Shown piece after piece: positions 1-18,772 of a stretch of 64,000 nucleotides of DNA. Each line of letters begins with the position of its first letter. Position 1 is the stretch's first letter. Below the pieces are notes generated by a model. The model saw only the letters and a list, made by a program, of their open reading frames with translations, did no database searches and had not been told where the DNA came from. The stretch covers positions 1 to 64,000 of the forward strand of contig NZ_VCCH02000011.1 of assembly GCF_005938675.2 (NCBI RefSeq), written 5' to 3'. The position numbers were made by a program, and so were the translations under genes. Source of the DNA: Mycobacterium sp. KBS0706. Lineage in GTDB: Bacteria; Pseudomonadota; Alphaproteobacteria; DSM-16000; Inquilinaceae.

Positions 1-202
1 TCGTTCTCCCTTCGCGTTCCCGGCGATGGATCCGCAAGTTTTTCCCCGCGGCGACGCAACGTCCGACCATGCCTCAGGCCCCCGCCCGATGTCCACGATC
101 CTTCCACCTGAAACAACGGAACCCGGACGGGGGCTCGCGCCTTGATTCCCACATCGCATCGCCGGGCGTCCGGCGCGGCCGACAACCTTCGAGGAACCGC
201 CC

Positions 203-691
203 TTGTCCAGCTTCCTGCGCACCCTCGCCCTGACCGCCGTCGCCGTCGGCGCCATCGCCTGCGTCCCGCAGGACGGCTCCTACGGCGACGGCCCCTACAA
301 TGACGGCTACTACAGCGACGGCGGCTACAACGACGGCGGCTACACCCGGATCGACGACCGCTACCGCCGCAACCGGAACGACAATGACCGCGCCAACAGC
401 TGCCGCCGCGCCTATGACGGCGAGTGCGACGAGGGCCGGTACGGCGGCAGCAACCGCTGCGACGACGGCACCGACACCGCCGATTGCCGCGGCTATGCCA
501 GCCGCGACCGCGACCACGGCCCGAACAGCTGCAGCCGCGCCTATAACGGCCAGTGCGACGAAGGCCGCTACGGCGGCAGCAACCGCTGCACCGACGGCAC
601 CGACACCGCCGACTGCACCGGCGGCGGCCGGCGCAGCAATCGCCGCAGCTATAACGACGACGACGACAACAACGGCTGGCCGTTCAACTGA
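203..691 (+). CDS. Putative lipoprotein with two tandem cysteine-rich repeats
   Basis: Unrecognised 162-residue exported protein. It starts at a TTG with GAGGA seven bases upstream. The N-terminus is a short hydrophobic signal ending in a lipobox-like AIAC, so Cys20 is probably lipidated and the protein anchored in a membrane. Residues 25-48 are a Gly/Tyr/Asp-rich low-complexity linker. Two near-identical modules follow: C67-x7-C75-x10-C86-x8-C95 and C110-x7-C118-x10-C129-x8-C138. Each carries CDEGRYGGSNRC and DGTDTADC, a small acidic four-Cys fold that could form two disulfides and perhaps bind calcium (inference). The tail is Asn/Asp-rich. It is monocistronic, and a hairpin lies just downstream. 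Confidence 0.7.
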   Translation: MSSFLRTLALTAVAVGAIACVPQDGSYGDGPYNDGYYSDGGYNDGGYTRIDDRYRRNRNDNDRANSCRRAYDGECDEGRYGGSNRCDDGTDTADCRGYASRDRDHGPNSCSRAYNGQCDEGRYGGSNRCTDGTDTADCTGGGRRSNRRSYNDDDDNNGWPFN

Positions 692-704
692 CGGTCCGGC
701 CCCG

Positions 705-730
705 GCGTGGCGGACTTTTTTCCGCCACGC
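705..730 (+). terminator. Perfect 10-bp hairpin, candidate terminator
   Basis: GCGTGGCGGA (705-714) pairs perfectly with TCCGCCACGC (721-730) around a CTTTTT loop, 14 bp after the lipoprotein stop. The T run is in the loop rather than after the stem, so intrinsic termination is uncertain. Confidence 0.45.
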
Positions 731-804
731 TCGGCCCCACATGGCCGCGGCGTCGCCATGATCGCCCGGCAAGGTCGGGTCCTCGATCCTGAAGGGGGAC
801 CCGC

Positions 805-2850
805 ATGACACCGATCCGCCTCGCCTTGCCGGTCGCCGCGGCCGTGGCGTTCCTGGCCCTGCCGGCCTTCGCCGCCGAGCCGCTGGCGCTGAAGCGCGTG
901 CTGCTGTCGACCGGCGGCGTCGGCTATTTCGAATACGAGGCCAAGGTCACCGGCAACGAGACCCTGGACCTGGCCGTGCCGCTGGACCAGGTCGACGATG
1001 TGATGAAGAGCATCGTCGTCTATGACGACAAGGGCGGCATCGGCGAGATCAGCCTGCCCGGGCGCGAGCCGCTGGCCGCCGCCTTCCGCGAGATGCCGTT
1101 CGGGCCGGAGGCGCTGGCCTCCCCCGCCGACCTGCTGAACGCGCTGCGCGGCGCCGAGGTCCGGGTCGAGGGCGCCCGCGGCGTCGCCGGCCGCATCCTG
1201 TCGGTGGTGCCCGAGACCTCGAAGGATAAGGATGGCTTGGGGATCACCCGCCACCGGGTCAGCCTGATGACCACGGGCGGGGTGCGCCAGTTCTTGCTGG
1301 AGGAAGCGGACGGGCTGCAATTCGCCGACCCGGCGCTGCAGGCCAAGCTGGATGCGGCGCTGGCCGCGCTGGCCCGCGATTCGGCCAAGGACCGGCGCAC
1401 TTTGGCGATCCGCGCCACCGGCGACGGCGAGCGCACGCTGCGCGTCGGCTATGTCGTCGCGGCGCCCTTGTGGAAGACCAGCTACCGCCTGACCCTGGCC
1501 GCCGACCCGAAGGCGGACAAGGCCGCCCTGCAGGGCTGGGCGGTGCTGGAGAATATGAGCGGCGCCGACTGGGACAAGGTCGACCTGACCGTCGTCTCCG
1601 GCAACCCGGTCACCTTCCGCCAGGCGTTGTACCAGAGCTACACCGTGGCGCGGCCGGAGGTGCCGGTCGAGGTGGCGGGCCGGGTGCTGCCGCCGGTCGA
1701 CGAGCGGGCCCGCGATGCCGACGGGGACGCGCTGGGCCGTGCCGCCGCCGCGGGCTCGGTCGCCCCACCGGCACCGATGGCCCGGATGATGGCGGCGCCG
1801 GCCGCCGAAGCGGTGGTCGCCGACCAGATGGACGCGGCCCCGCAGCAATTCGCCAAGGTCACCGCGGCGGAATCGGGCGAGACCGCGACCCAGGTCACGT
1901 TCCACCTGCCGGAGCCGGTGACCGTCGCCGCCGGCCATTCGCTGCTGGTGCCGATCATCGACCGCGAGATCCCGGCCAGCCGGGTTGACCTGTATCTGCC
2001 GGAGACGGAGCCGAAGCACCCGCTGGCCGCGGTCGACCTGAAGAATGACGGCCAGACCGGCCTGCCGCCCGGTGTGCTGACCCTGTATGAGCGCGGCGCC
2101 GATGGTGCGGTCGCCTATGTCGGCGACGCCCGGCTGGGGGCGCTGCCGGCCGGCGAGACCCGGCTGGTCAGCTTCGCCGTCGACCAGAAGGTGACGGTCG
2201 AGCGCGAGGACAAGCGCGACGACACCCTGGCCCGCGCCCGCATCGTCGACGGCGTGCTGGAGCTGACCACCACCCAGCGCGCCAGCGTGACCTATGCCGT
2301 GACCGGCGCCGCCGGCGAGGACCGGACGGTGCTGCTGCAGACGCCGCGCTACGACGGCTGGACCCTGACCGAGCCGGCGGAAGGCAAGGTCGAGATCGTC
2401 GCCGGCCAATACCGCATCCGCCAGGTGGTGCCGGCCGGCAAGACCGAGAAAGTGACGGTGACGCAGGAGCAGCCGCTGTCGCAGAGCATCGATCTGGCCG
2501 ACGACGCCGACGACCAGATCGCCGCCTGGGCCGAGGACCGCACCCTGCCGGCCAAGGTGCGCCAGGCGATGGCGGACCTCGCCGGCCAGCTCGCGGTGAT
2601 CCGCGACCACGAGGCCGAGGCCGAGCGGCTGGAGCAGCGCCAGGCCGAGATCAGCCGCGAGCAGGCGCGGCTGCGCCAGAACATCGGCGCGGTGCCGAAG
2701 GACAGCGACCTGTTCCAGCGCTATCTCGGCAAGCTGAACGACAGCGAGAGCGAGCTGGAGCAGGTCGGCACCGACCTCGCCAAGGCCCGCAAGGCGACCG
2801 ACGCGGCACGGGCAACATTCCGCCAGTCGGTGCGCAAGCTGAATATCTGA
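805..2850 (+). CDS. DUF4139 domain-containing exported protein
   Basis: 681-residue protein beginning with a clear Sec signal (MTPIRLALPVAAAVAFLALPAFA) and preceded by GAAGGGGG. The middle matches the beta-rich DUF4139 family, whose members (MuiA-like mucoidy inhibitors and relatives) have no established biochemical role. Residues about 310-345 form an Ala/Pro/Met-rich linker. The C-terminal 100 residues are charged and heptad-like, probably a coiled coil. It is predicted to be periplasmic. It stands alone on this strand, with a dispersed palindrome immediately after it. Confidence 0.8.
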   Translation: MTPIRLALPVAAAVAFLALPAFAAEPLALKRVLLSTGGVGYFEYEAKVTGNETLDLAVPLDQVDDVMKSIVVYDDKGGIGEISLPGREPLAAAFREMPFGPEALASPADLLNALRGAEVRVEGARGVAGRILSVVPETSKDKDGLGITRHRVSLMTTGGVRQFLLEEADGLQFADPALQAKLDAALAALARDSAKDRRTLAIRATGDGERTLRVGYVVAAPLWKTSYRLTLAADPKADKAALQGWAVLENMSGADWDKVDLTVVSGNPVTFRQALYQSYTVARPEVPVEVAGRVLPPVDERARDADGDALGRAAAAGSVAPPAPMARMMAAPAAEAVVADQMDAAPQQFAKVTAAESGETATQVTFHLPEPVTVAAGHSLLVPIIDREIPASRVDLYLPETEPKHPLAAVDLKNDGQTGLPPGVLTLYERGADGAVAYVGDARLGALPAGETRLVSFAVDQKVTVEREDKRDDTLARARIVDGVLELTTTQRASVTYAVTGAAGEDRTVLLQTPRYDGWTLTEPAEGKVEIVAGQYRIRQVVPAGKTEKVTVTQEQPLSQSIDLADDADDQIAAWAEDRTLPAKVRQAMADLAGQLAVIRDHEAEAERLEQRQAEISREQARLRQNIGAVPKDSDLFQRYLGKLNDSESELEQVGTDLAKARKATDAARATFRQSVRKLNI

Positions 2851-2883
2851 CCGCGACGGCCGCCTGGCTTTCGCTTCCAACAC

Positions 2884-2973
2884 CGTCATGGCGAGCCCCG
2901 AAGGGGCGTGGCCATCCAGGGGCCGGTGCGAGCCGCCCTGGATGGCCACGGCGCTGCGCGCCTCACCATGACC
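2884..2973. repeat. Dispersed palindrome, family A copy 1
   Basis: Starts CGTCATGGCGAGCCCC, contains GTGGCCATCCAGG and the inverted CCTGGATGGCCAC, and ends CTCACCATGAC. Two further copies lie at 25945-26033 and 54121-54206. All three are in intergenic DNA. The whole unit can fold into one long stem, so it is a REP/BIME-like element. Confidence 0.8.
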
Positions 2974-3002
2974 GTTTGGTGTTTCCGGTTACTGAAGGCC
3001 AT

Positions 3003-3036
3003 CACCCCTCCTGACAGAATGCTGTCAGGAGGGGTG
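3003..3036. promoter_or_regulatory. Perfect 15-bp inverted repeat, candidate WYL-regulator operator
   Basis: CACCCCTCCTGACAG (3003-3017), loop AATG, then CTGTCAGGAGGGGTG (3022-3036), with no mismatch. It sits 56 bp before the start of the barrel protein/WYL regulator pair. The core TGACAG-N4-CTGTCA has the symmetry of a dimeric repressor site. A terminator is less likely because no T-run follows. That it is the WYL regulator's operator is inferred from position only. Confidence 0.55.
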
Positions 3037-3092
3037 GCGTAATCTCCCATCATCGAAGGCCCCTCCCGGGCCTCGCGGATGGAGAGACGGCG

Positions 3093-3401
3093 ATGGCCTT
3101 CGTCACCGAGGTGGTGCTGTTCCGGGCCCGGCCGGGCATCGCGGTCGAGACCGCGGTCGAGACCGTGGTCGAGGCGGCGGAGGGCAGCCGCGCGGCGCTG
3201 GCCGGGATGGACGGCTATATCGACCGCAGCTTCGGCGTCAGCGCCGACGGGCTGTTCGGCGACATCGTGCGCTGGCGCGACCTGGCCAGCGCCGAGGCGG
3301 CGGCCGCGGTGGCGCCGGGCCTGCCCGGCTTCGACCGCTTCATGCAGGTCATCGACGGGCCGAGCGTTCGGCTCTATCACTTCAGGAGCCGTTCCCTCTG
3401 A
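3093..3401 (+). CDS. Small dimeric alpha/beta-barrel-like protein
   Basis: 102 residues, with a good ribosome site (GGAGAG) before the ATG. The pattern of short beta strands and helices (AFVTEVVLFRARPG near the start, RWRDLASAEAA in the middle, a strand ending SVRLYHF) resembles the ferredoxin-like dimeric barrel of the antibiotic-biosynthesis monooxygenase/EthD group. No catalytic residue can be assigned. It is followed 35 bp later by a WYL-type regulator and preceded by a perfect inverted repeat, so the two genes probably form one autoregulated unit. Confidence 0.7.
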   Translation: MAFVTEVVLFRARPGIAVETAVETVVEAAEGSRAALAGMDGYIDRSFGVSADGLFGDIVRWRDLASAEAAAAVAPGLPGFDRFMQVIDGPSVRLYHFRSRSL

Positions 3402-3436
3402 CCCTCACGCCTGCCCGTTCGGCGGGCCTGCCGCCG

Positions 3437-4153
3437 ATGCGCCGAGCCGACCGCCTGATCCAGATCCTGCTGTTCATGCGCGGCCGCACCCTGGTCACGG
3501 CGCAGCAGCTGTCCGAGGCGCTCGAGGTCTCGGAGCGCACGATCTATCGCGACATGGCGGACCTGCTGGCCAGCGGCACGCCGATCGACGGCGAGGCCGG
3601 GGTCGGCTACCGGCTGCGCCGCGGCTTCGAGCCGCCGCCGGTGCAGTTCACCGCCGAGGAGCTGCTGGCGCTGAGCCTGGGCGCCCGCATGGTCGCGGCC
3701 TGGACCGATCCGGCCCTGGCCCGCGCCGCCGGCAATGCCGCGCGCAAGATCTCCGGCGTGCTGCCCGAAGCCAGCGCCGCCTCGCTCGACGAGGCGCCGA
3801 TCCATGCGCCGAGCCGCCGGCCCTATCCGCTGGAGCTGATGGAGCCGATCCGCCTGGCGATCGCCGGGCGGCGCAAGCTGCGGCTGCATTACAGCGCGCC
3901 GGAGGCGACCAGCGAGCGGATCGTGCATCCGCTCGGCCTGTTCTTCTGGGGCAACCGCTGGACCGCCACCGCCTGGTGCGAGCTGCGCCAGGATTTCCGC
4001 AGCTTCCGCCTCGACCGGATCGACACGCTGGAGACGCTGGAGGAGCGGTTCCAGCCAGTCAGCGGCCGCACCCTCGAGGACTACCTCAACCGCGAGCGCG
4101 AGTGGCGCGAGGCGGAGGAACTGAAGGAGGCGCGCCCCCGTTCCGTTCCCTAG
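3437..4153 (+). CDS. YafY-type transcriptional regulator (HTH_11 plus WYL domain)
   Basis: 238 residues, the usual length for the family. The N-terminal 65 residues are a winged helix-turn-helix (TAQQLSEALEVSERTIYRDM), followed by a linker and a WYL-type ligand-sensing domain from about residue 135 (RKLRLHYSAPEAT through SFRLDRIDTLETL). In the family, WYL domains sense small ligands and control an adjacent gene. Here the partner is the small barrel protein directly upstream, and the inverted repeat at 3003-3036 is the obvious candidate site. The ribosome site is weak, consistent with translation coupled to the upstream gene. Confidence 0.88.
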   Translation: MRRADRLIQILLFMRGRTLVTAQQLSEALEVSERTIYRDMADLLASGTPIDGEAGVGYRLRRGFEPPPVQFTAEELLALSLGARMVAAWTDPALARAAGNAARKISGVLPEASAASLDEAPIHAPSRRPYPLELMEPIRLAIAGRRKLRLHYSAPEATSERIVHPLGLFFWGNRWTATAWCELRQDFRSFRLDRIDTLETLEERFQPVSGRTLEDYLNREREWREAEELKEARPRSVP

Positions 4154-4206
4154 AGGCCGCCGCCCGAGACCGGGCGTCGACGGCCGAACGAAACCGGAGG
4201 CGTCGC

Positions 4207-4281
4207 GTGCGCTACATCCTGCTCTGGCTGCTCGGGATTCCGATCCCGCTCCTGATCCTGATCTGGCTGTTCTTCCGCTGA
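4207..4281 (+). CDS. 24-residue single-span membrane peptide
   Basis: GTG start with GGAGG at 4196-4200, six bases upstream. The peptide is almost entirely hydrophobic (RYILLWLLGIPIPLLILIWL) and ends FFR before TGA. It is one membrane span with a central GIPIP kink. Tiny proteins of this look occur in other proteobacteria as uncharacterised proteins (from memory, not checked). It is about 50 bp after the WYL regulator and could be its last operon member. Function unknown. Confidence 0.6.
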   Translation: MRYILLWLLGIPIPLLILIWLFFR

Positions 4282-4447
4282 CCGGCGGCGCCTTCGGGCG
4301 CCTCCGAGCGCCCCCCGGCGACACAGGGTTCAGCCCCGGCTTCATTGTGCAGCGAAGCCGAAATATCCGTTACAGAACAAACACTTGCGCTGTTGACCCA
4401 TCGTCTCCGCGCAGCTATCCGGGGCCCATCGACCGTCACCCGGATGC

Positions 4448-5029
4448 TTGCGCGTGCCCCTCGCCACCACCCTCGGCCTCGCCCTCAGCCTGTCCATGGA
4501 CGCCTTCGCCGCCGCCATCGGCAAGGGCGCGTCCGCGCGCCATATCCCGGCCCGCGCCCAGGCGGTGGAGGCGATGCGCGTCGGCGTCGTGCTGGGCGGG
4601 TTCGAGCTGGTCATGCCGCTGCTCGGCTGGGCCCTGGGCATCGCCTTCGCAGAGGCGGTGGCGGCCATCGACCACTGGGTCGCCTTCATCCTGCTCGGGG
4701 CCGTCGGCGGCCGAATGGCCTGGCACGGGATGATGCCGGAGCGGGCCTCGGCGCCGGACCGGCGGTCGAGCCTCGGCGCGCTGGTCATGGCCGGCATCGC
4801 CACCAGCCTGGACGCCACCGCGGTCGGGGTCAGCCTCGCCTTCGTCCGGATCGACATCTGGACGGCCAGCCTGACCATCGGCGCGGTCACCTTCGCCATG
4901 TGCCTGCTGGGCTTCGGGCTCGGCCGCGGCGCCGGGGCGCGGCTCGGCCGGCTGGCCGAGGTGCTGGGCGGGCTCGGCCTGATCCTGGTCGGCGCCCGGA
5001 TCCTGGTCGAGCATCTGGGTGGGGGTTGA
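4448..5029 (+). CDS. mntP: Manganese efflux pump MntP
   Basis: 193-residue inner-membrane protein with six predicted helices. LSMDAFAAAIGKGA in helix 1 and the related TSLDATAVGVSLAF after the central loop are the paired Asp-containing motifs of the MntP (YebN) family, which exports Mn2+. The start is TTG 4448 or GTG 4454; the sequence does not decide between them. I looked for the yybP-ykoY manganese riboswitch in the 165 bp upstream and did not see its conserved core. Confidence 0.88.
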   Translation: MRVPLATTLGLALSLSMDAFAAAIGKGASARHIPARAQAVEAMRVGVVLGGFELVMPLLGWALGIAFAEAVAAIDHWVAFILLGAVGGRMAWHGMMPERASAPDRRSSLGALVMAGIATSLDATAVGVSLAFVRIDIWTASLTIGAVTFAMCLLGFGLGRGAGARLGRLAEVLGGLGLILVGARILVEHLGGG

Positions 5030-5077
5030 GTCCCGTCACCATTGACGGTCCGGGACATCTTTCTGAATCATGAGGTC

Positions 5078-5313
5078 ATGAAGACCATCACGGTGCCGTG
5101 GACGATGAAACTTACCGGCGCGCCTGCGTGAGGGCTGCCGAGCGCGGCAATTCCCTCGCCGCGCTCATCAGACAATTCCTGGACGAGCTCGCCCGGGAAG
5201 ATGGTGATCGGGTACAGCTTAAGCGAGAAGAGGCCGCGCTGCGGGCGTCCATCCGGTCATTCCGGGCCTCGGACCGTATTTCGCGCGACGAGATCCGCGA
5301 GTGGGACACCTGA
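5078..5313 (+). pseudogene. Frameshifted ribbon-helix-helix antitoxin
   Basis: The frame from GTG 5098 gives DDETYRRACVRAAERGNS and a charged C-terminal tail, typical of a 75-80 residue VapB/RHH antitoxin. The expected first residues MKTITV are encoded from ATG 5078, but in another frame: only two bases separate GTG (V) from the GTGGACGAT that continues the protein, so one base is missing relative to an intact gene. From ATG 5078 the frame runs into a TGA within 45 bases. Translation could restart at GTG 5098 without the DNA-binding strand. No toxin gene follows. It is a decayed toxin-antitoxin remnant or, less likely, a sequencing error. Confidence 0.6.
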
Positions 5314-5327
5314 CCTAACTTTCACTC

Positions 5328-5609
5328 GGCGGCAAGCAGGGCATGGATGTCCTCAGCCGAAAAGTGCTAGCCGACCCGGCGACCGATCTCCTCCGGGCTC
5401 ATGGGCCCGTGGCCGACCATCGCGCGCACAATCACCCAGCGTGGCGGCGCTAGCACCTGTAGCGCAAGGTCTCGCGAGACGAAGTTGATCGAGCATCCCT
5501 GATGAGGCTCGCCTCGGAACGCGGCGGCGAGACGGGCCTTGGCCTCGTCGAGGGGCGCGACGCAGATGGTCACGGTGGTCTGGGCGTGGCTCTCCATGCG
5601 GCATGTCAT
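5328..5609 (-). pseudogene. Winged-helix (HVO_A0114-like) regulator interrupted by a stop codon
   Basis: From ATG 5609 the minus strand reads 80 residues ending RWVIVRAMVGHGPMSPEEIGRRVG, the start of a winged-helix DNA-binding domain of the kind found in HVO_A0114-type antitoxins. A TAG at 5364-5366 then stops it. The same frame continues HFSAEDIHALLAAE before a second stop, so the recognition part is cut off or decayed. With the broken antitoxin next to it, this marks a degraded toxin-antitoxin or defence patch. Family assignment is by pattern only. Confidence 0.5.
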
Positions 5610-6258
5610 TCGCTCGCATGATAGCGAACGGCAGGGACGTCGTCGCGTCGCTTGCCGGCGGGTGGGCCGGCCGCAGTCTCCTGACGGCCCTGGCGACCAG
5701 GTGCGCCTCGTCGGCGCCTCCCGCGATCAGCTTCCCCCGACTGCGCCCATTTCAGTCAGGTCGTGCGGGTCCAACAGATCGCCCGGCTGGAGCACCAGGG
5801 CCAGCAACTCGACCGGCAACGGGTCAGGCTGCGGCTTCTTCGACCGGCGCCTATGTGGTGCCCAAATTCCCCTGGCCTGGCGCTGAGATCGGCGCGGGGT
5901 CGCTCCGGCGTCAAAGCCAGCCCGGAATCGTTTCGGAATCGTAATGGCCCCCGGTCAAGTTACTGCGGCGACGAAAATGTAAGACCGCGCGCCGCCCCCG
6001 GCCGGCGATCGGGCCAAGTTCGAGACGCCCCCCGAGCCGCCGAGCCCTGGTCAGATTTACTCACTGGCACGTTGAAGAGCGTACACCACGCAGTTCAGGG
6101 AGGTAGAATGCCACCGTTGAGGAAGGCGAGCGCGATGCAATACGCCTGCGGAGGTTCTTGCCGACACTGCTATAGGCCAGCATACTGCGTCGGGAACTCG
6201 CGGTTGAGTCCCACCTTTGAATCTGCGATCTTAGACGCCTTGGCAGTAAGGTCGAAAA
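5610..6258. other. Gene-poor mosaic stretch upstream of the defence pair
   Basis: About 650 bp with no convincing gene on either strand. The frames that stay open have no family pattern and no ribosome site. Composition falls from the high G+C of the flanks toward the AT-rich island. It holds no recognisable tRNA, integrase or complete IS. Probably scar tissue from past insertions; it presumably carries the promoter of the ATPase/HNH operon in its last 150 bp. Confidence 0.5.
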
Positions 6259-7557
6259 ATGACCCCAACTTTTTCCAGTATAAAAATCAATAATTGGCGT
6301 CAATTCTCAAAAATTGACATCAATTTTCATGAAAAACTGACGATCATAACCGGAGTAAATGGATCTGGTAAGAGCACCATACTTCGCATTTTGTCCCAGC
6401 ATTTCGGAATTGAGAATGTGGTGCTCGCCACTCCGGGAGGCGAAGGATCTGCGGGGCCTCTATTTCTGTCAGGACTATTTGGAAGGCCAGACGTAAATCA
6501 GAACAGTATGAAATGGGAAGAAGAGGAACGGGAGATCGAGGAAGAAAATCAGGAGGATGTGGAAGAAATTGGCAATATACTTTACAGTAATGGCCAGACA
6601 TCCGCACTTGCCATAAGATTCGACGGTACGTTGTCATATCATGTTGATATCCCGTCCAGACAGAATATTCGTGGGTTATTTATAGGATCTCATTGGCCGC
6701 TTAGTCCATATAGAAGAATAAGCCACATTCCAACTGACTTCTCCAACATCGAACAACACAACGGAAAATATAAACAAGTACTTCAAACAAAGTATATTCA
6801 TGGACAGTCAGATATTAGTACTATCTACGTAATAAAAGAGGCCATCATTGCTATGGCGATATTTGGGTCTGGCAATGAACATGTTCAACCAGATCCTATG
6901 ATAGAAGCTCATTTCAAGGAATTTAAAGAGATATTGCGCAAGATTCTTCCAACGTCAATCGGATTTCAAGACATTAGCATCAGAATGCCGGACGTTGTGA
7001 TCGTCACAAAGTCCGGAGACTTCATTGTCGATGCTGCCTCTGGAGGGTTGACGACTCTGATTGAGTTAGCTTGGCAGATGTTTGTCGCTTCTAGAGATGG
7101 AACTAACTTCGTAGTGATCGTTGATGAGCCAGAGAATCACCTGCATCCCGCAATGCAGAGAACCATTCTCACTTCGCTTTTAGATATTTTTCCTGAGGCC
7201 CAATTCATTGTCGCGACGCATAGTCCATTTATTGTATCGTCGGTAAAGAATTCTTCAGTGTATGTTCTTGACTACGAAGAAAAGATAGTCGACGGCAAAC
7301 CCGCTCGTTACGTAAATTCTCTGCTTCTTAACAATTTTGCCAAAGGCGGAACTGCAAGCGAGATATTGCGTACAGTACTGGGCGTCCCGGTCACAATGCC
7401 ATTGTGGGCCGAGAACGAGCTGGAGGTCATCACCCGCAACTTCGATGCGCGGCAGCTTGATGACGCTTTGATTGCCGAACTTCGAAGTCGACTACAGCAC
7501 GCCGGCTTATCGGAGTTTTACCCAGAAGCCCTCAGCCGAATTGTGACCGCACGATGA
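6259..7557 (+). CDS. ptuA: PtuA-like AAA/ABC-type ATPase of a Septu-like defence pair
   Basis: 432-residue ATPase. Walker A GVNGSGKST is at residues 32-40, a degenerate signature ASGGLTTL near 260, Walker B VVIVDEPENHLHP at 285-297 and the H-loop His321 in VATHSPF. An unusually acidic insert (about residues 86-103) lies in the lobe between Walker A and the signature. No TOPRIM nuclease domain follows, unlike OLD proteins. The stop overlaps the start of an HNH nuclease by ATGA, the arrangement of Septu (PtuA/PtuB), where ATPase and nuclease form one anti-phage complex. Base composition is far below the flanks (18 G+C in the 60 bases 6301-6360), a sign of horizontal transfer. No reverse transcriptase is nearby, so it is not the retron-linked form. 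Confidence 0.8.
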   Translation: MTPTFSSIKINNWRQFSKIDINFHEKLTIITGVNGSGKSTILRILSQHFGIENVVLATPGGEGSAGPLFLSGLFGRPDVNQNSMKWEEEEREIEEENQEDVEEIGNILYSNGQTSALAIRFDGTLSYHVDIPSRQNIRGLFIGSHWPLSPYRRISHIPTDFSNIEQHNGKYKQVLQTKYIHGQSDISTIYVIKEAIIAMAIFGSGNEHVQPDPMIEAHFKEFKEILRKILPTSIGFQDISIRMPDVVIVTKSGDFIVDAASGGLTTLIELAWQMFVASRDGTNFVVIVDEPENHLHPAMQRTILTSLLDIFPEAQFIVATHSPFIVSSVKNSSVYVLDYEEKIVDGKPARYVNSLLLNNFAKGGTASEILRTVLGVPVTMPLWAENELEVITRNFDARQLDDALIAELRSRLQHAGLSEFYPEALSRIVTAR

Positions 7558-8321
7558 TAAAGTTATCAAAAGGAAGTATGCCAGAAGTCCTTAAAAAAAA
7601 CGGCGAAAAGTGGACTCAAATAGTTTTAGACAGAATCGCAAACAACGAGAAACCGACACCTTCAGAAACCGGTCGTTATAAGCACACCGAGATAAAACGG
7701 GCTCTTATATCTGAAACCTGTGGTAAATGCGCTTATTGTGAGAGTAAGTTACTCCATATTCATCATGGTGACGTCGAGCATTTTGTTCCGAAGTCGTTAG
7801 ATCCCGCAAGAACGTTCGATTGGAATAATCTGATTCTCGCTTGTGAAATTTGCAACCAATCTAAATCTGACATTGATCCGCATATTAATTTCATTATTAA
7901 TCCATATATCACGGACCCGGGTGATCACTTAATATTTTCTGGTCCTCTGATATTTTCTAAGGGCACGCCGCAAGGGAAGTCGACGATCAGAATACTGAAA
8001 CTTGATCGCGCACAACTGTACGAAGCGAGAAAGGATCGGGCCGAGAAAGTAACGAAGATCATGGAGAACCTTTTCGACAGCCGATTAACGTCGGTCGAAC
8101 GAAAGGCGATATACAAGGATTTAATCGATGTGGAGGCGTCGAGATCGGAGCAATATTCAGCTATGATTCGTGAAATGATCCGCTCGATAGAGTGGAGGCT
8201 GCCGAGCGATATACGCTCTGACGAGAGCACCATCGTACCGCTGTCGCCAACGCAATCTGCGGTCCTGTCAGGTCAGGAAGAGATCAGCGCCAATGTGGTT
8301 GAAAAGCCGATTGCGCCGTGA
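7554..8321 (+). CDS. ptuB: PtuB-like HNH endonuclease of a Septu-like defence pair
   Basis: 255 residues, translationally coupled to the ATPase by a 4-nt overlap. The N-terminal third holds an HNH fold with zinc-knuckle pairs C59-x2-C62 and C97-x2-C100, the catalytic-type motif VEHFVPKS (His76) and WNNLILACEICNQSK carrying the Asn. The remaining 140 residues are helical and charged, probably the ATPase-binding part (inference). In Septu the HNH subunit degrades nucleic acid once the ATPase senses infection. Codon use is AT-rich like its partner. The last about 30 residues become more G+C-rich, so the island edge lies close to the stop. Confidence 0.8.
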   Translation: MIKLSKGSMPEVLKKNGEKWTQIVLDRIANNEKPTPSETGRYKHTEIKRALISETCGKCAYCESKLLHIHHGDVEHFVPKSLDPARTFDWNNLILACEICNQSKSDIDPHINFIINPYITDPGDHLIFSGPLIFSKGTPQGKSTIRILKLDRAQLYEARKDRAEKVTKIMENLFDSRLTSVERKAIYKDLIDVEASRSEQYSAMIREMIRSIEWRLPSDIRSDESTIVPLSPTQSAVLSGQEEISANVVEKPIAP

Positions 8322-8440
8322 GGAACAGGCTGCGAGCTGGCTGACTGAGCAGATTGCCTCTCCGGCATAGCGAGACCGTTTTAGAAAGTCCCCGGGGTCT
8401 TCCCGGAGGCTTGTGACGATATCGGCCGAAAGCAAAATGA

Positions 8441-8468
8441 GTCCCCCTCCCCTTGCGGGAGGGGGGAC
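8441..8468. terminator. Strong hairpin between convergent genes
   Basis: GTCCCCCTCCC (8441-8451) pairs with GGGAGGGGGGAC (8457-8468, one extra G) around CTTGC. It lies between the nuclease gene and the end of the indolepyruvate oxidoreductase gene and could terminate both. The CTCCC-N-GGGAG pattern is also the motif of palindrome family D (57068-57198). Confidence 0.45.
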
Positions 8469-8547
8469 TAAAAAGGGAAAGGCGTTGGGTATTCTGAAAA
8501 GGTCTCGCTTGCGGAAGAGGCCGCGCGCTCCGTCCGCCTCGCCCGCC

Positions 8548-11500
8548 CTACTCCGCCGCCAGCTTCGGTGCGGCCGGGGTGCGCAGGGTGGCCAGCAGCG
8601 CGGCCTCGCGGGCCTTGGCTTTGTCCCGGTTCTCGTCCTTGATGTGGCCGTAGCCGCGGATCTGCTCCGGCACCCGGGCGATGGCGACGCAGATCGCGTG
8701 GGTGTCCGGCCCCAGCCGGGCCAGCAGCTCCTCCACCACCGCCTCGTAATCGGCGATCAGCTGCCGCTCGCCCTTGCGCTCGGCGGTCCGGCCGAACGGA
8801 TCGAGGGCGGTGCCGCGCAGCCGCTTCATCCGCGCCAAGAGGCCGAAGGCCCGCAGCATCCAGGGGCCGAAGCTGCGCTTCTTGAGATGGCCGGTCTCCG
8901 GATCCTTCTCCGAGAAGGACGGCGGCGCCAGGTGGAACTGCAGCGTGTAGCCGCCTTCGAACTGCGCCTCGATCTGCTTCAGGAAGCTGCCGTCGGTGTA
9001 CAGCCGGGCGACCTCGTACTCGTCCTTGTAGGCCAGAAGCTTGTAGTAGTTCCGGGCCACCGCCTCGGTCAGCTCCTCGCGGCCCAGCTTGGCTTCCGCG
9101 GCGCGCACCTTGCCGACCAGCGCGCTGAACCGCACGGCATAGGCGGCGTCCTGATAGGCGGTCAGCTGCTCGACCCGGCGGGCGATCACCTCGTCCAGGG
9201 TCCGCGACAGCCGGTGCCCTTCCTCCTGCGGCGGCGTCGCCAGCCGCTCGACCGCGGCGAGGTCGTGGGCGGCGCGGCGGCCCCACAGGAAGGCGGCCTT
9301 GTTCATGGCGACCGCGGTGCCGTTCAGCTCGATCGCCTTCTCCAGCGCCTCATGCGACACCGGCACCAGCCCCTTCTGCCAGGCATAGCCGAGCATGAAC
9401 AGGTTGGTGGCGATGCTGTCGCCGAGCAGCGCCGTGGCCAGGCGGGTGGCGTCGACCGAATCCAGCAGCTTCGGGTCGCCGCCGTTCTTCGCCACCGCCT
9501 CCAGCATCGACGCGCCGGGGACGACGAAGTCCGGGTTGCGGGTGAAGGCGCCGGTGATCGTCTCGTGGCTGTTCACCACCTGCCGGGTCAGGCCGGGATG
9601 GATCTTCGACTGCGCCTCGCCCGAGGCGGCGACCACCAGGTCGCAGCCCAGCATCAGCCGGGCGCCGCCGGCGGCGATGCGCACGGCGTGGATCTCCTCC
9701 GGCGTCCGGGCGATGCGGACATGGCTGACCACGGCGCCGCCCTTCTGGGCAAGCCCGGCCTGGTCGAGCACCGAGACGCCCTTGCCCTCGAGATGCGAGG
9801 CCATGCCCAGGAGCGCGCCGATGGTGATGACGCCGGTGCCGCCGATGCCGGTGATCATGATGCCGTAGGGCTGGTCCAGCGACGGCAGCTCAGGCTCCGG
9901 CAGAACCGGGAACAGGTCAGCCTGCCCCTCCGCCGCCGGCTTCGGCTTGCGCAGCTTGCCGCCGAGCACCGAGACGAAGGACGGGCAGAAGCCGTTGACG
10001 CAGGAATAGTCCTTGTTGCAGCTCGACTGGTCGATCGCGCGCTTGCGGCCGAATTCGGTCTCCACCGGCACCACCGACAGGCAGTTCGAGACCTTCGAGC
10101 AGTCGCCGCAGCCTTCGCACACCGCCTCGTTGATGACCACCCGGCGGGCCGGGTCCTCCATCAGGCCGCGCTTGCGGCGGCGGCGCTTCTCGGCGGCGCA
10201 GGTCTGGTCGTAGATCATCACCGAGACGCCGGGCGTCTCGCGCAGCCGCCGCTGGACGTGGTCGAGCTCGTCGCGATGCTCGACCGGCACGCCCGCCGGC
10301 AGCAGCTTGCTCTGCGTCCCGCGCTCGCCATAGATCTCCGGCCGGTCGGTGACCACGACCAGGGTCTGGACGCCCTCGGCCCGCAGCTGGGCCGCGATCA
10401 TCGGCACGGTGAGGGTGCCGTCCACCGGCTGGCCGCCGGTCATCGCCACGGCGTCGTTGAACAGGATCTTGTAGGTGGCGTTGACGCCCGCGGCGAGCGC
10501 CGCCCGGATGGCCAGGCTGCCGGAGTGGAAATAGGTGCCGTCGCCGAGATTGACGAAGACGTGCTTGGTGTCGGTGAACGGCGCCTGGCCGATCCAGGCC
10601 GCGCCCTCGCCGCCCATCTGGCTGAAGGTCTCGGCCTTCCGGTCGGGCATCCAGGTCGCCATGTAGTGGCAGCCGATGCCGGCCATGGCGCGGCTGCCCT
10701 CCGGCACCCGGGTCGAGGTGTTGTGCGGGCAGCCGGAGCAGAAAAACGGCACCCGGTCGACCGCGGCCTTGACGATCTTCTTCTGGCCCTCGCGCTCCTC
10801 CAGGTAGCGGACGCGCTCGGCCAGGCCGGGATGGTCCAGGTACTTCAGCAGGCGCTTGCCGATGGCGACCGCGATCTGCGCCGGGGTCAGCTCGCCGGTC
10901 GAGGGCAGGATCCAGTCGCGCTTCTCGTCGAACTTGCCGACGATCACCGGCCGCTTGTCGGCGTGCCAGTTGTACAGCTGCTCCTTCAGCTGGTTCTCGA
11001 TCAGGGCGCGCTTCTCCTCGACCACGATCAGCTCGTCGAGGCCTTCGGCGAAGGCGCGCACGCCGGTCGGCTCCAGCGGCCACGGCATGCCGACCTTGTA
11101 GATGCAGATGCCGAGCTCCGCCGCCAGCGCCCGGTCGATGCCGAGGTCGTCCAGCGCCTGGCGGACATCGAGATAGGATTTGCCGGTGGTGACGATGCCG
11201 AAGCGGTGCCGGCCGCTGTCATAGACCAGGTGGTCGAGCCTGTTGGCGCGGGCGAAGGCGAGCGCGGCGTAGAGCTTGTCGCGCATCAGCCGCTCTTCCT
11301 GCACCAGCGGCGGGTCGGGCCAGCGGATGTTGAGGCCGCCGGGCGGCATGGCGAAGTCTTCCGGGAGCACGATCTGGACCCGGTCCGGATCGACATGCAC
11401 CGAGGCCGAGCTGTCGACATTCTCGGCGATGGTCTTGAAGCCGACCCAGAGGCCGGAATAGCGGCTCATCGCCCAGCCATAGAGGCCGTAGTCCAGGATC

Positions 11501-12042
11501 TCCTGGACGTTGGTCGGGTTCAAGACCGGCATCATATGGGCGATGAAGGCGTGCTCGGACTGGTGCGGCACGGTCGAGGATTTGCAGGCATGGTCGTCGC
11601 CGGCCAGGGCCAGGACGCCGCCGAATTTCGAGGTGCCGGCGAAGTTGGCGTGCTTCAGCACGTCGCCGGTGCGGTCGACGCCGGGGCCCTTGCCGTACCA
11701 GATGCCGAACACGCCGTCATGCTTGGCGCCGGGCCACAGCCCGACCTGCTGGCTGCCCCAGACCGCGGTGGCGCCGAGATCCTCGTTCAGCCCGGGCTGG
11801 AACTCGATGTTCTGCTTCTGCAGGAACTTGCGCGCCGCCCACAGCGCCTGGTCGTAGCCGCCGAGCGGCGAGCCGCGATAGCCGGAGATGAAGCAGGCGG
11901 TGTTCAGCCCGGCGGCTTCGTCGCGCCGGCGCTGCATCAGGGGCAGGCGGACCAGCGCCTGGATGCCGGTGAGATAGATGCGGCCGGAGTCGAGGGTGTA
12001 TTTGTCCTCGAGGCTCACGGAAGCAAGCGCCGTTGCCGTCAT
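8548..12042 (-). CDS. Fused indolepyruvate ferredoxin oxidoreductase (alpha and gamma domains)
   Basis: 1164 residues from ATG 12042, chosen because GGGAGG precedes it and the family begins near LEDKYTLDSGRIYLTG. The N-terminal two thirds are the IorA-like pyrimidine- and TPP-binding domains (GNEDLGATAVWGSQQ region, then DGTYFHSGSLAIRAA). A cysteine-rich iron-sulfur patch (CEGCGDCSKVSNC and following Cys) is around residues 635-675. The C-terminal third is the gamma domain (GIGGTGVITIGALLG). The enzyme oxidatively decarboxylates aryl-pyruvates from aromatic amino acids to the acyl-CoA, passing electrons to ferredoxin. The single-chain form is usual in alpha- and betaproteobacteria. It is monocistronic. 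Confidence 0.9.
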   Translation of the reverse strand: MTATALASVSLEDKYTLDSGRIYLTGIQALVRLPLMQRRRDEAAGLNTACFISGYRGSPLGGYDQALWAARKFLQKQNIEFQPGLNEDLGATAVWGSQQVGLWPGAKHDGVFGIWYGKGPGVDRTGDVLKHANFAGTSKFGGVLALAGDDHACKSSTVPHQSEHAFIAHMMPVLNPTNVQEILDYGLYGWAMSRYSGLWVGFKTIAENVDSSASVHVDPDRVQIVLPEDFAMPPGGLNIRWPDPPLVQEERLMRDKLYAALAFARANRLDHLVYDSGRHRFGIVTTGKSYLDVRQALDDLGIDRALAAELGICIYKVGMPWPLEPTGVRAFAEGLDELIVVEEKRALIENQLKEQLYNWHADKRPVIVGKFDEKRDWILPSTGELTPAQIAVAIGKRLLKYLDHPGLAERVRYLEEREGQKKIVKAAVDRVPFFCSGCPHNTSTRVPEGSRAMAGIGCHYMATWMPDRKAETFSQMGGEGAAWIGQAPFTDTKHVFVNLGDGTYFHSGSLAIRAALAAGVNATYKILFNDAVAMTGGQPVDGTLTVPMIAAQLRAEGVQTLVVVTDRPEIYGERGTQSKLLPAGVPVEHRDELDHVQRRLRETPGVSVMIYDQTCAAEKRRRRKRGLMEDPARRVVINEAVCEGCGDCSKVSNCLSVVPVETEFGRKRAIDQSSCNKDYSCVNGFCPSFVSVLGGKLRKPKPAAEGQADLFPVLPEPELPSLDQPYGIMITGIGGTGVITIGALLGMASHLEGKGVSVLDQAGLAQKGGAVVSHVRIARTPEEIHAVRIAAGGARLMLGCDLVVAASGEAQSKIHPGLTRQVVNSHETITGAFTRNPDFVVPGASMLEAVAKNGGDPKLLDSVDATRLATALLGDSIATNLFMLGYAWQKGLVPVSHEALEKAIELNGTAVAMNKAAFLWGRRAAHDLAAVERLATPPQEEGHRLSRTLDEVIARRVEQLTAYQDAAYAVRFSALVGKVRAAEAKLGREELTEAVARNYYKLLAYKDEYEVARLYTDGSFLKQIEAQFEGGYTLQFHLAPPSFSEKDPETGHLKKRSFGPWMLRAFGLLARMKRLRGTALDPFGRTAERKGERQLIADYEAVVEELLARLGPDTHAICVAIARVPEQIRGYGHIKDENRDKAKAREAALLATLRTPAAPKLAAE

Positions 12043-12321
12043 CGATGCCTCCCGAAAGGCCGCCGATCTGTCGCCGCGGCCACCCCTCAATAGGTAATCT
12101 TCTTTCGCCCCGGGGACAATCACGCCAGGGCTACGGGAGCAAGAAAGCAACGGGAAACCGACAGTATTGCTGTCCTTGATCCAAGATTTCCAGTTGTCTC
12201 GAAATCGCGACGGAAACGAACCTGGTCGGCCGGGCTGCGACACCGCCGGGGGTGACGGATCGACCTTGTGCCCCTAGATAGGTCTGGCGGCCGGGCCCGG
12301 CCGCGCGACCCCGGTTGGATC

Positions 12322-13674
12322 ATGGCCGACGAAGAGAACAGTTTCGGCGGACGCCTGCGCCGCTATGCCCGAGTCTCCGGCGCCATGGGCGGCCTGGCCG
12401 CCCGGGTGGCGGGCGAGCGCTATCTCGGCCTCAAGGTCGACCGCGAGGCGCATGCCAATGAGCTGCGGGCGGCGCTTGGCGGGCTCAAGGGCCCGCTGAT
12501 GAAGGTGGCGCAGATGCTGGCCACCATCCCCGAGGCGGTGCCGAAGGAATACGCGCAGGAGCTGCAGCAGCTGCAGGCCGACGCCCCGTCGATGGGCTGG
12601 CCGTTCGTCAAGCGCCGCATGGCGAGCGAGCTGGGGCCGGCCTGGCAGGGCAAGTTCCAGAGCTTCGAGCATGAGGCGGCCGCCGCGGCCTCGCTGGGAC
12701 AGGTGCACCGGGCGGTCGGGCTCGACGGCAGGCGCCTCGCCTGCAAGCTGCAATATCCGGACATGCAATCGGCGGTCGAGGCCGACCTGAAGCAGCTGAA
12801 GCTGATCCTCGGCATCTTCGAGCGCTACGACAAGACCGTCTCCACCAAGCAGATCCACGCCGAGATCTCGGAGCGGCTGCGCGAGGAGCTGGACTATTCG
12901 CTCGAGGCCCGGCACTCGCAGCTCTATGCCGAGATGCTGGCGCAGGAGCCGAACGTCCATGTGCCGGAGGTGGTGCCGGAGCTGTCGACCAAGCGCCTCC
13001 TGACCACCACCTGGCAGGACGGCAAGAAGATCCTGACCTTCGTCGAGGGCAGCGAGGAGCAGCGGGCCCAGCTGGCGCTGAACATGTTCCGGGCCTGGTA
13101 TGTGCCGCTGTACTTCTACGGCGTGATCCATGGCGACCCGCATCTCGGCAACTATTCGGTGCGGGAGGATGATTCGATCAATCTGATGGATTTCGGCTGC
13201 ATCCGGCTGTTCCCGCCCAGCTTCGTCGGCGGGGTGATCGAGCTGTACCGGGCGCTGGAGACCAATGACCGCGACCGCGCGGTCGCCGCCTACAAGACCT
13301 GGGGCTTCAAGAACATGACCAATGAGCTGGCCGACGTGCTGAACGTTTGGGCCGGCTTCCTGTACGGCCCGATCCTGGAGAACAAGGTCCGGCTTATCGG
13401 CGAGGCCAAGAACGGCGTCTATGGCCGCGAGACCGCCGAGCAGGTGCACAAGGAGCTGCGCCGGGTCGGCGGCATCGAGGTGCCGCGCGAGTTCGTATTC
13501 ATGGACCGGGCGGCGCTCGGCCTCGGCTCGGTCTTCATCCACCTCAAGGCCCGGGTGAACTGGCATACCCTGTTCAACGAGCTGATCGCCGATTTCGACC
13601 AGGACATCCTGGCCAAGCGCCAGGCCGCGATCCTGAAGACGCACGGCCTGACGCCGCCGGTGGCGGGCGCCTGA
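12322..13674 (+). CDS. ABC1/UbiB-family atypical kinase
   Basis: 450 residues from ATG 12322 (MADEENSFGG). The family's N-terminal KxGQ-type motif is LMKVAQML, with Ala in place of Gly. The Ala-rich loop AAAAASLGQVHRA, the catalytic-loop HGDPHLGNY and the metal-binding NLMDFGC are present. Relatives (UbiB/COQ8, AarF) are ATPases/kinases that support ubiquinone synthesis or lipid homeostasis. There is no C-terminal membrane anchor, so this is probably a soluble member rather than UbiB itself. It is divergent from the indolepyruvate oxidoreductase. Confidence 0.85.
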   Translation: MADEENSFGGRLRRYARVSGAMGGLAARVAGERYLGLKVDREAHANELRAALGGLKGPLMKVAQMLATIPEAVPKEYAQELQQLQADAPSMGWPFVKRRMASELGPAWQGKFQSFEHEAAAAASLGQVHRAVGLDGRRLACKLQYPDMQSAVEADLKQLKLILGIFERYDKTVSTKQIHAEISERLREELDYSLEARHSQLYAEMLAQEPNVHVPEVVPELSTKRLLTTTWQDGKKILTFVEGSEEQRAQLALNMFRAWYVPLYFYGVIHGDPHLGNYSVREDDSINLMDFGCIRLFPPSFVGGVIELYRALETNDRDRAVAAYKTWGFKNMTNELADVLNVWAGFLYGPILENKVRLIGEAKNGVYGRETAEQVHKELRRVGGIEVPREFVFMDRAALGLGSVFIHLKARVNWHTLFNELIADFDQDILAKRQAAILKTHGLTPPVAGA

Positions 13675-13777
13675 CCCGGCGCCCAAGCGGGACGCAGCCA
13701 TGCGGGGCACCGAAACGCTGGATCGGCGGTTTCCATGGGAGGACAATGCCCATGGATCCGAGAGCCCCGGAGGTTTC

Positions 13778-14605
13778 ATGACCATCCAGCACCTGCTCGT
13801 TCCCCTCAGCGGCCATGCCGGCGATCGCGCCGCGCTCGATGCCGCACTGCGGGTCGCCAAGCGCTTCGACGCCTCGGTCGAGGTGCTGTCGCTCCGCCCC
13901 GACCCGCAGCGGGTCCTGGCCTATACCGGGGCCGAGATGGCGGTCGCCACCAGCATGCTGCTGGAGGGCGCGGAGAAGGCCTCGAACGAGGTCGCCGCCC
14001 GCAACCGCGCCGTGTTCGACGCCGCCGCGGCCGAGGCCGGCATCGGGCCGGAGGTCGAGTTCCGCGAGGAAACCGGCGGCGAGACGGCCGTGATCGGCCA
14101 TCGCGGCACCGTCGCCGACCTGATCGTCACGCCCGGCCCGGGCCAGGACCCGAACGCCAGCCGGGCCGTGCTGGAGGCCGCTCTGTTCGAGACCGGCCGG
14201 GCGGTTCTGATCGTGCCCGGCCCGGTGGCGGAGGATTTCGCCGAGCGCATCCTGGTCGCCTGGGACGGCGGCAAGGAGGCGTCGCGCAGCGTCGCCGCCG
14301 GCCTGCCCTTCCTGGAGGCGGCGACGGCGGTCAGCGTCTACACCCGCGACGAGGGCGAGGACCGCTGCACCGCGGCCGAGCTGGTGCGCTATCTCAGCCG
14401 CCATGGCGCGCCGGCGAACCGGATCGCCGAGGACGATCCGAAGCAGGGGGTCGATGCCGCCATCCTGGCCGCGGCCCAGCGCAGCAATGCCGGGCTGATC
14501 GTGATGGGCGGCTACAGCCACAGCCGGTTCCGCGAGATGATCCTGGGCGGCGTCACCGAGCACATGCTGTTCCACGCCGACCGCCCGGTGCTGATGGCGC
14601 ATTGA
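13778..14605 (+). CDS. Tandem universal stress protein (UspA family)
   Basis: 275 residues from ATG 13778, preceded by CCGGAGG. Two Usp domains: residues 1-145 begin IQHLLVPLSGH, and the second begins ERILVAWDGGKEA. The second ends with the nucleotide-binding-type loop MGGYSHSRFREMILGGVTE. Tandem UspA proteins are cytoplasmic stress-response proteins; partners are unknown here. It is about 100 bp after the ABC1 kinase gene on the same strand, so co-transcription is possible. A 10-bp hairpin follows about 50 bp after the stop. Confidence 0.88.
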   Translation: MTIQHLLVPLSGHAGDRAALDAALRVAKRFDASVEVLSLRPDPQRVLAYTGAEMAVATSMLLEGAEKASNEVAARNRAVFDAAAAEAGIGPEVEFREETGGETAVIGHRGTVADLIVTPGPGQDPNASRAVLEAALFETGRAVLIVPGPVAEDFAERILVAWDGGKEASRSVAAGLPFLEAATAVSVYTRDEGEDRCTAAELVRYLSRHGAPANRIAEDDPKQGVDAAILAAAQRSNAGLIVMGGYSHSRFREMILGGVTEHMLFHADRPVLMAH

Positions 14606-17663: not shown

Positions 17664-17695
17664 CGGATGCTCCGTCGCGACAATCGGAGTCGGAT

Positions 17696-18649: not shown

Positions 18650-18737
18650 GGTCGTCCCCTCCCCCCAACGGGCCGCAGTATGACCCGGGATGCGAGGCCC
18701 GTCTCGGGCCTGTTACCCGCCAGCGACAAAGCATGAC

Positions 18738-18766
18738 TTGACCAACTACCTACTAGAAGGTAGATT
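18738..18766 (+). promoter_or_regulatory. Sigma70-type promoter of the tetR gene overlapped by an operator
   Basis: TTGACC at 18738-18743, a 17-bp spacer, then TAGATT at 18761-18766, just ahead of the ATG at 18773. The spacer and the -10 carry the palindrome CTACCTACTAGAAGGTAG (18746-18763). Confidence 0.65.
18746..18763. promoter_or_regulatory. TetR-type operator O1
   Basis: CTACCTACTAGAAGGTAG, an 18-bp near-perfect palindrome (one non-complementary pair). The same pattern recurs perfectly at 19414-19431 before the next gene, so the TetR protein probably represses itself and its neighbour. Confidence 0.7.
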
Positions 18767-18772
18767 ATTTAT

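What the first reader, a model, noticed from the sequence alone, without database searches (positions are those of the whole stretch)
6259..8321. AT-rich Septu-like (PtuAB) anti-phage pair
An ATPase with Walker A/B and H-loop and an HNH nuclease overlap by ATGA and have strikingly low G+C in a very G+C-rich chromosome, beside toxin-antitoxin remnants. The ATPase has an acidic insert (residues 86-103) and the nuclease a long helical C-terminal half, which may define a distinct subtype. This is the best candidate for an immune system here.
Basis: partly seen in the sequence, partly recalled or inferred. Interest (0 to 1): 0.75.

Follow-up and report, generated by a model that had tools for sequence, protein, structure and literature searches.

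The report
Horizontally acquired Septu anti-phage gene pair
Two overlapping AT-rich genes in a GC-rich bacterial chromosome encode an apparently intact Septu defence pair (an ATPase and a nuclease that together stop phages), probably gained recently where a sister species carries other genes; it is a new member of a known system, not a new type.

Summary
The pair at 6259-8321 is real and is Septu. PtuA (432 aa) and PtuB (255 aa) hit PADLOC models PDLC00290 (502 bits) and PDLC00337 (247 bits), and their models match Septu and retron I-A structures first. Catalytic residues are invariant in the family. PtuB adjoins or is fused to PtuA in 69 of 73 related loci. No reverse transcriptase was seen nearby, so it fits Septu type I, not a retron. 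It looks foreign: 44-45% G+C against 70%, absent from the genus's five other genomes, and standing where one of them has an RHH-PIN toxin-antitoxin pair. The 'distinct subtype' idea fails: the acidic insert is a disordered expansion of a hypervariable loop, not shared by the nearest relatives, and the helical half is ordinary PtuB fold. An unstructured PtuB tail is also private. The clade is already modelled in PADLOC; no member turned up among solved structures. Protection, trigger and substrate are untested.

The parts
6259..7557 (+). ptuA: ABC-type ATPase of Septu type I, 432 aa. Walker A K38, signature S261-G-G263, Walker B D289-E290, H-loop H321
6484..6567 (+). codons 76-103 of ptuA: part of a hypervariable loop with the acidic expansion; residues 76-97 have pLDDT below 50
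7554..8321 (+). ptuB: HNH nuclease of Septu type I, 255 aa, overlapping ptuA by ATGA; H76, N92, K104 and C59, C62, C97, C100 present
8217..8318 (+). codons 222-255 of ptuB: C-terminal tail private to this copy, low confidence (pLDDT block means 45-64)
5098..5313 (+). orphan RHH (FitA-like, below Pfam cut-off) antitoxin ORF beside the insertion; in sister genome G001 its counterpart is followed by a PIN gene
5295..8546 (.). segment with no blastn counterpart between the flanks in G001, where about 460 bp with a PIN gene stand instead: the acquired region, with ptuAB in its AT-rich core (about 6050-8350). Pieces of a dispersed repeat near its 3' edge match repeat copies elsewhere in the genus

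Best explanation
A complete, apparently functional Septu type I (RT-free PtuAB) anti-phage system, acquired horizontally and not yet adjusted to the host's base composition. By analogy with solved PtuAB complexes, PtuA forms an ATP-binding oligomer that holds a few PtuB nucleases in check (inferred). Phage infection releases or activates PtuB (inferred). PtuB then uses its HNH site to cut nucleic acid and stop phage production, probably at a cost to the cell's growth (inferred). Shown here: identity of both proteins, intact catalytic residues, operon structure, single-chain folds, no RT seen nearby, foreign composition and patchy presence. Not shown: expression, protection, trigger, substrate. 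Published relatives differ in substrate: host tRNA-Tyr for retron-Eco7 and Septu Ec-B88, nicked DNA as reported for Septu of E. coli ATCC 25922. For this clade I guess tRNA at about 0.5 and DNA at about 0.4; nothing here tests it.
For: PADLOC PtuA E 3.2e-151 over residues 4-430 and PtuB E 3.2e-74 over residues 1-213. In 73 related loci PtuB is a separate neighbour in 68 and fused in 1; of 67 separate pairs measured (one duplicate, L105, dropped) none has more than 60 bp between the genes and 56 overlap, 23 by exactly 4 bp. The fusion L077 carries both PADLOC models in one 599-aa protein. Catalytic residues invariant. Foldseek: the 50 rows shown for PtuA (of 1492 matches) all come from Septu or retron I-A entries (that the chains are PtuA is inferred from chain length); the 10 PtuB matches with E below 0.001 come from the same kinds of entry. 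No Y[AVLM]DD motif in six frames of window 1-20000 (a crude test); the genome's two RVT_1 hits lie on other contigs; no Rfam match at 5000-8700 up to E 1. Patchy presence: no match at E 1e-20 in the 5 other genomes of the genus, while the downstream flank is found at 90-92% in all five and the upstream one at 84-92% in three. Literature, passages only: PMC13096335 (Walker and H-N-H mutants abolish Septu Ec-B88 immunity; tRNA-Tyr cleavage) and PMC11555353 (retron-Eco7 PtuAB depletes tRNA-Tyr; ATCC 25922 Septu said to target nicked DNA).
Against: No activity data. Sequence similarity to solved PtuA is low and confined mainly to the ATPase ends (best phmmer 71.6 bits). NCBIfam retron PtuA and PtuB models score below their cut-offs (117.1 against 500, 69 against 150 bits), which fits an RT-free relative but is no positive support. 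Whole-chain PtuA superpositions are poor (TM by query 0.40-0.51, rmsd 9-20 A), so the assembly is inferred. No sigma-70-like promoter was found upstream of ptuA in 5900-6258 (weak evidence for such a host). Of the 73 loci, L044 has a PtuA without a PtuB, and the PtuBs of L047 and L081 are truncated or split. The two private features could affect function. Retron-Eco4 PtuAB likely does not target tRNA (PMC11555353), so substrate cannot be read from the family.
Confidence: 0.93

Rival explanations
1. Retron type I-A (Septu type II) effector pair that works with a reverse transcriptase and ncRNA encoded nearby or elsewhere.
For: PADLOC's retron I-A models also match, weakly (ATPase_I-A 114.8 bits, HNH_I-A 76.8 bits). 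The genome has two reverse-transcriptase matches.
Against: No RT was seen before ptuA, whereas PADLOC's type II has a preceding RT (PMC8565338, passages). The two RTs are on other contigs, C59 and C412. No Rfam match at 5000-8700. Scores to PDLC00290 and PDLC00337 are 3-4 times higher. In a crude Y[AVLM]DD scan of neighbouring ORFs over 200 aa in the 73 loci, 9 ORFs carried the motif (4 of them PtuA or PtuB themselves); one, in L082, looked like an RT by eye and matches RVT_1, about 1.5 kb downstream of ptuB. The other loci were not scanned with an RT profile.
Confidence: 0.03
2. A decayed, inactive remnant of a Septu system stranded by a past mobile element.
For: Foreign G+C, an orphan antitoxin-like ORF next door, no promoter found, and two lineage-specific extensions (loop and tail) could mean relaxed constraint. 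Split or truncated copies exist among relatives (G280; L061, L081, L047).
Against: Both frames are open and every family-invariant residue examined is retained. Models are confident outside the loop and tail (mean pLDDT 86.3 and 89.7).
Confidence: 0.05
3. A distinct Septu subtype defined by the acidic insert in PtuA and the helical half of PtuB.
For: Insert and helical half are both present. A few other family members also have long acidic loops at the same place: L034, L060 and L074 with 12, 13 and 15 acidic residues.
Against: The window's own clade (L024, L025, L108, L109; support 100/99) has loops of 29-31 residues with 1-7 acidic ones, against 46 with 14. The insert is predicted disordered. 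Long-loop rows are scattered through the tree on reading it; the tool's 'one change' figure (2 of 500 shuffles as low) compares them only with the three outgroup rows and does not bear on this. The helical half aligns with solved PtuB chains.
Confidence: 0.02

Closest known systems
Septu type I (PtuA + PtuB), PADLOC models PDLC00290 / PDLC00337; nearest named relatives found: Phyllobacterium trifolii L024 and Mesorhizobium sp. L025
   Same: Two-gene order with a 4-bp overlap, invariant catalytic residues; PtuA 53% and 49%, PtuB 48% and 51% identical
   Different: Window PtuA has 46 residues in the variable stretch against 30 and 30; window PtuB has 43 residues from position 213 on against 12 and 9
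Septu of E. coli (PDB 8EE4, 8EEA; that this is strain ATCC 25922 is recalled)
   Same: ABC ATPase plus HNH nuclease; folds match
   Different: Only 70.2 bits by phmmer for PtuA; solved chain 465 aa against 432. 8EE4 itself was not scanned against PADLOC or put in the tree
Retron type I-A effectors PtuA/PtuB (Ec78/Eco7, Ec83/Eco4)
   Same: Homologous ATPase and HNH nuclease
   Different: Those work with an RT and ncRNA, and their PtuA chains are mostly about 540-550 aa; an Ec78-like comparator (L121) falls outside the window's family in the tree, on a long branch, and has another best PADLOC model
AriA of PARIS, GajA of Gabija, OLD-type ATPases (system names recalled)
   Same: Same ABC-like ATPase core (AriA PADLOC 82.8 bits; PDB matches)
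   Different: Much weaker scores and other partners

Membership tests
Septu type I | PtuA: ABC-type ATPase with Walker A, signature, Walker B and H-loop | tested here: met
   PDLC00290 502.4 bits over residues 4-430; residues invariant in 67 of 67 rows
Septu type I | PtuB: HNH nuclease | tested here: met
   PDLC00337 247.4 bits, Pfam HNH 31.1 bits over its cut-off of 21.4; H76 and N92 in 65 of 65 rows
Septu type I | ptuA and ptuB adjacent on one strand | tested here: met
   ATGA overlap at 7554-7557
Septu type I | No reverse transcriptase before ptuA | tested here: met
   No RT motif in six frames of window 1-20000, a crude test; RVT_1 matches in the genome only on other contigs
Septu type I | Fold of both proteins | tested here: met
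   Foldseek top matches are from Septu and retron I-A entries; whole-chain PtuA TM by query is only 0.40-0.51
Septu type I | PtuA-PtuB oligomeric complex | not testable with these tools
   Only single chains were predicted; the natural fusion L077 is indirect support
Septu type I | Phage protection that needs both active sites | not testable with these tools
   Shown for Septu Ec-B88 in PMC13096335 (passages), not for this pair
Retron type I-A / Septu type II | RT and retron ncRNA next to ptuAB | tested here: not met

The most novel reading that the evidence does not exclude
The PDLC00290/PDLC00337 clade is a functionally separate RT-free Septu lineage with its own trigger or substrate. The hypervariable PtuA loop, acidic in this copy, would be the part under diversifying selection from phages (a sensor or anti-inhibitor surface), and the private PtuB tail would tune nuclease release.
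Probability: 0.1. Interest if true: 0.5.

Novelty: new member of a known kind. Interest (0 to 1): 0.2.

Why it matters
Comparison with sister genomes shows a Septu pair sitting at a variable intergenic site, beside an orphan antitoxin-like ORF where a relative has a toxin-antitoxin pair. It also points to a widespread PtuAB clade for which no solved structure turned up and whose substrate (tRNA or DNA) is open. For this window it settles an annotation; it does not change what Septu is.

Tried and rejected
Rejected: retron I-A (no RT or ncRNA seen); decayed remnant (frames and active sites intact); a subtype by acidic insert or helical half (see rivals); a non-defence AAA/HNH pair (Pfam matches are generic ATPase and HNH domains; the best NCBIfam matches are retron PtuA and PtuB, below cut-off). 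Target-site repeats around the island: the repeat finder gave seven direct families and two inverted pairs, mostly imperfect; one exact 13-bp direct pair (5227-5239 and 8514-8526) spans the island, but the tool warns that short two-copy families are often chance, and I did not follow it. No tRNA gene in the window to act as an attachment site. No PIN remnant in window 5000-8700 by tblastn (best E 0.19). DNA similar to window 5900-8560 on plasmids: no match. PtuA in phage records: 8 records, none covering 80% of it. Single-sequence scans of genome contigs and viral contigs confirmed no relative; the alignment-based scans did. One search found 114 relatives and kept the best 80; of those 80 and the 15 I used 59 and 11 (L024-L082, L104-L114) and dropped L083-L103 and L115-L118 as short partial matches. 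With three plasmid loci (L005-L007) that makes 73. L104 and L105 give the same matches as L028 and look like the same prophage. L105 was dropped from the counts and from the alignments; L104 stayed. Rows left out: L007, L055, L061, L067, L075, L077, L105; L035, L072, L077, L081, L105 (and the loci without a PtuB). The tree also dropped L104 and L113 and cut L040 to its PtuA part. A first G+C comparison on 25 loci picked by me (all 25 lower than their flanks) was replaced: 65 of 68.

Full report
WHAT IS THERE. Two ORFs on the + strand, 6259-7557 (432 aa) and 7554-8321 (255 aa), overlap by ATGA. They are 44.3% and 44.9% G+C, against 69.9% for the rest of the window; the lowest 2063-bp window of the 64 kb (50-bp steps) begins at 6151, on them.

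IDENTITY. The first protein matches PADLOC PtuA model PDLC00290 with 502 bits over residues 4-430, the second PtuB model PDLC00337 with 247 bits over residues 1-213. Pfam gives AAA_15, AAA_21 and HNH above cut-off. NCBIfam's retron-effector PtuA and PtuB models are the best there but below their cut-offs. PDB sequence matches for PtuA (23 distinct) are PtuA of Septu and of retrons I-A first, then AriA, GajA, OLD, and weakly UvrA and an ABC-F protein. For PtuB (8 distinct) they are five PtuB chains first, then three other HNH proteins. AlphaFold models (mean pLDDT 86.3 and 89.7) were built from alignments of 35 and 32 sequences, the window and a selection of the relatives. Foldseek shows 50 of 1492 PtuA matches, all from Septu or retron I-A entries, and the 10 PtuB matches with E below 0.001 come from such entries too; weaker ones are Cas9 and others. 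Against the reading, whole-chain PtuA superposition is loose (TM 0.40-0.51 by query length), so domain arrangement and oligomer state are not established.

RELATIVES. An alignment-based scan gave 80 loci kept of 114 from GTDB genomes and 15 from IMG/VR; I used 59 and 11 with strong matches, plus three plasmid loci, 73 in all. PtuB was found next to PtuA in 68 and fused to it in one (L077, both PADLOC models in one 599-aa protein). The four without are L044 (no PtuB in the locus) and L068, L107, L111 (the DNA held ends at or within about 250 bases after ptuA). In the 68, the PtuB of L081 is split over two frames and that of L047 is only 114 aa. In 67 separate pairs, 56 overlap, 23 by exactly 4 bp, and 11 have 0-60 bp between (starts are the longest possible, which overcounts overlaps). 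K38, S261-G263, D289, E290 and H321 are identical in 67 of 67 PtuA rows; C59, C62, H76, N92, C97, C100, N101 and K104 in 65 of 65 PtuB rows, window included in both. In a maximum-likelihood tree of 68 rows the window groups with Phyllobacterium, Mesorhizobium and two viral contigs (support 100/99). The 65-row family, which spans Pseudomonadota, Bacillota, Bacteroidota, Cyanobacteriota and others, is separated from three other PtuA-type comparators by a supported branch (99/94); the comparators are long branches whose place the tool calls unsure. Two of them, L121 (Ec78-like, with RT) and L122 (E. coli plasmid), have other best PADLOC models (PDLC00299, PDLC00279), while five relatives scanned (L005, L006, L024, L060, L066) have PDLC00290.

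THE TWO 'SUBTYPE' FEATURES. The stretch between residues 59 and 104 runs from 12 to 67 residues in 67 PtuA rows. The window has 46, of which 14 are acidic. Its four clade partners have 29-31, with 1-7 acidic. Residues 76-97 have pLDDT below 50. L032, L034, L037, L060 and L074 also have long loops, 51-67 residues with 8-15 acidic, so long acidic loops turn up more than once in the family. The helical second half of PtuB is shared with solved PtuB chains (alignments of 224-264 columns). What is private to the window is the PtuB tail: 43 residues from position 213 on, against 0-15 in the other 64 aligned PtuB rows; residues 222-255 have low confidence.

ORIGIN. At E 1e-20 the pair's PtuA is absent from the 5 other genomes of the genus; at E 1e-30 it is found in 1 of the other 288 genomes sampled in the class, G280, where the gene lies in two pieces in different frames. 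The downstream flank is found in all five sister genomes at 90-92%; the upstream one (MntP gene) in three, G001, G002 and G005, at 84-92%. Both flanks lie on one contig in G001 and G005; in G002 they are on different contigs. In G001 about 460 bp stand between the flanks and hold a PIN gene (Pfam E 1.9e-12, above cut-off) right after the RHH ORF. In the window the RHH ORF remains (64% identical over 69 residues) and no PIN match was found. G002 and G004 keep an RHH-like stretch (73% and 69%) upstream of the downstream flank. In G005 about 1250 bp hold a 385-aa ORF with a weak PAS match below cut-off. So the site is variable; that Septu replaced the toxin in one event is inference. G000 is listed with 9.82% contamination, but the pair and both genus-like flanks lie on one contig, so contamination does not explain it. 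No convincing target-site repeat and no tRNA were found. Low G+C is common in the clade: in 65 of 68 loci measured the pair is poorer in G+C than its flanks, on average by 9 points. ORFs of one cluster, which I take for tyrosine integrases from their sequence (not from a profile), occur in 11 of 73 loci, and 11 loci came from viral contigs, which fits mobile carriage.

MECHANISM. Published PtuAB systems: in Septu Ec-B88, substitutions in Walker A/B (K43, D316) or the H-N-H motif (H75, N91) abolish immunity, and infection triggers cleavage of host tRNA-Tyr in the variable loop (PMC13096335, passages read). H75 and N91 have the same spacing as H76 and N92 here. Retron-Eco7 PtuA and PtuB, only when expressed together, stop growth, and tRNA-Tyr is depleted; retron-Eco4 likely does not target tRNA; [quoted passage not shown] That ATP-bound PtuA restrains PtuB is recalled from Li et al. 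2024, which is not held here. I therefore take the window pair as an infection-triggered nuclease held by an ATPase oligomer; trigger and substrate are open. PADLOC's Septu type II has a preceding RT (PMC8565338, passages read); none was seen here.

VERDICT. A new member of a known kind. The clade is already covered by PADLOC models; the PDB sequence searches with the family profiles returned other PtuA and PtuB, at 106 bits or less and 48 bits or less, so no member of the clade is among them as far as the scores tell. Whether any member has been tested against phages I could not establish: four paper searches (listings and abstract openings) gave no lead, cover open-licence papers only, and the tested systems were not compared by sequence.

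Noticed in passing
L040:3468-6236: In Gottfriedia luciferensis one open frame of 922 aa joins an N6/N4 DNA methylase domain (Pfam, residues 24-278) to a full PtuA of this clade (PADLOC, residues 512-919), followed by ptuB: a possible methylase-PtuA fusion.
   Followed up: partly
L077:1826-3625: Natural PtuA-PtuB fusion in one 599-aa protein (PDLC00290 at 3-388, PDLC00337 at 386-595).
   Followed up: partly
L005:5047-12311: On Vibrio tubiashii plasmid p251 the pair sits among a DUF2971 gene, a CAP12/Pycsar-type TIR protein, an annotated restriction endonuclease and a kinase-phosphatase pair: a likely defence island.
   Followed up: partly
window 8353-8530: A dispersed intergenic repeat at the 3' edge of the island; many partial copies in all six genomes of the genus.
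   Followed up: no
window 5227-5239 and 8514-8526: Exact 13-bp direct repeat (GAAGAGGCCGCGC) on either side of the island, one copy inside the RHH ORF, one in the dispersed repeat; may be chance.
   Followed up: no
window 48200-49100: Second low-G+C patch of the window (down to 45%); the 289-aa frame there (48400-49269, -) has no Pfam match up to E 0.01 and no PADLOC match up to E 1e-5.
   Followed up: partly
window 5367-5609 (-): Short frame with a match just below cut-off to the HVO_A0114 family (E 1.4e-5, 25.2 against 27.6 bits), perhaps another remnant.
   Followed up: no
L082:8317-9357: A reverse-transcriptase gene (RVT_1 73.9 bits) about 1.5 kb downstream of a PtuAB pair of this clade in Halodesulfovibrio; probably a separate retron.
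   Followed up: partly
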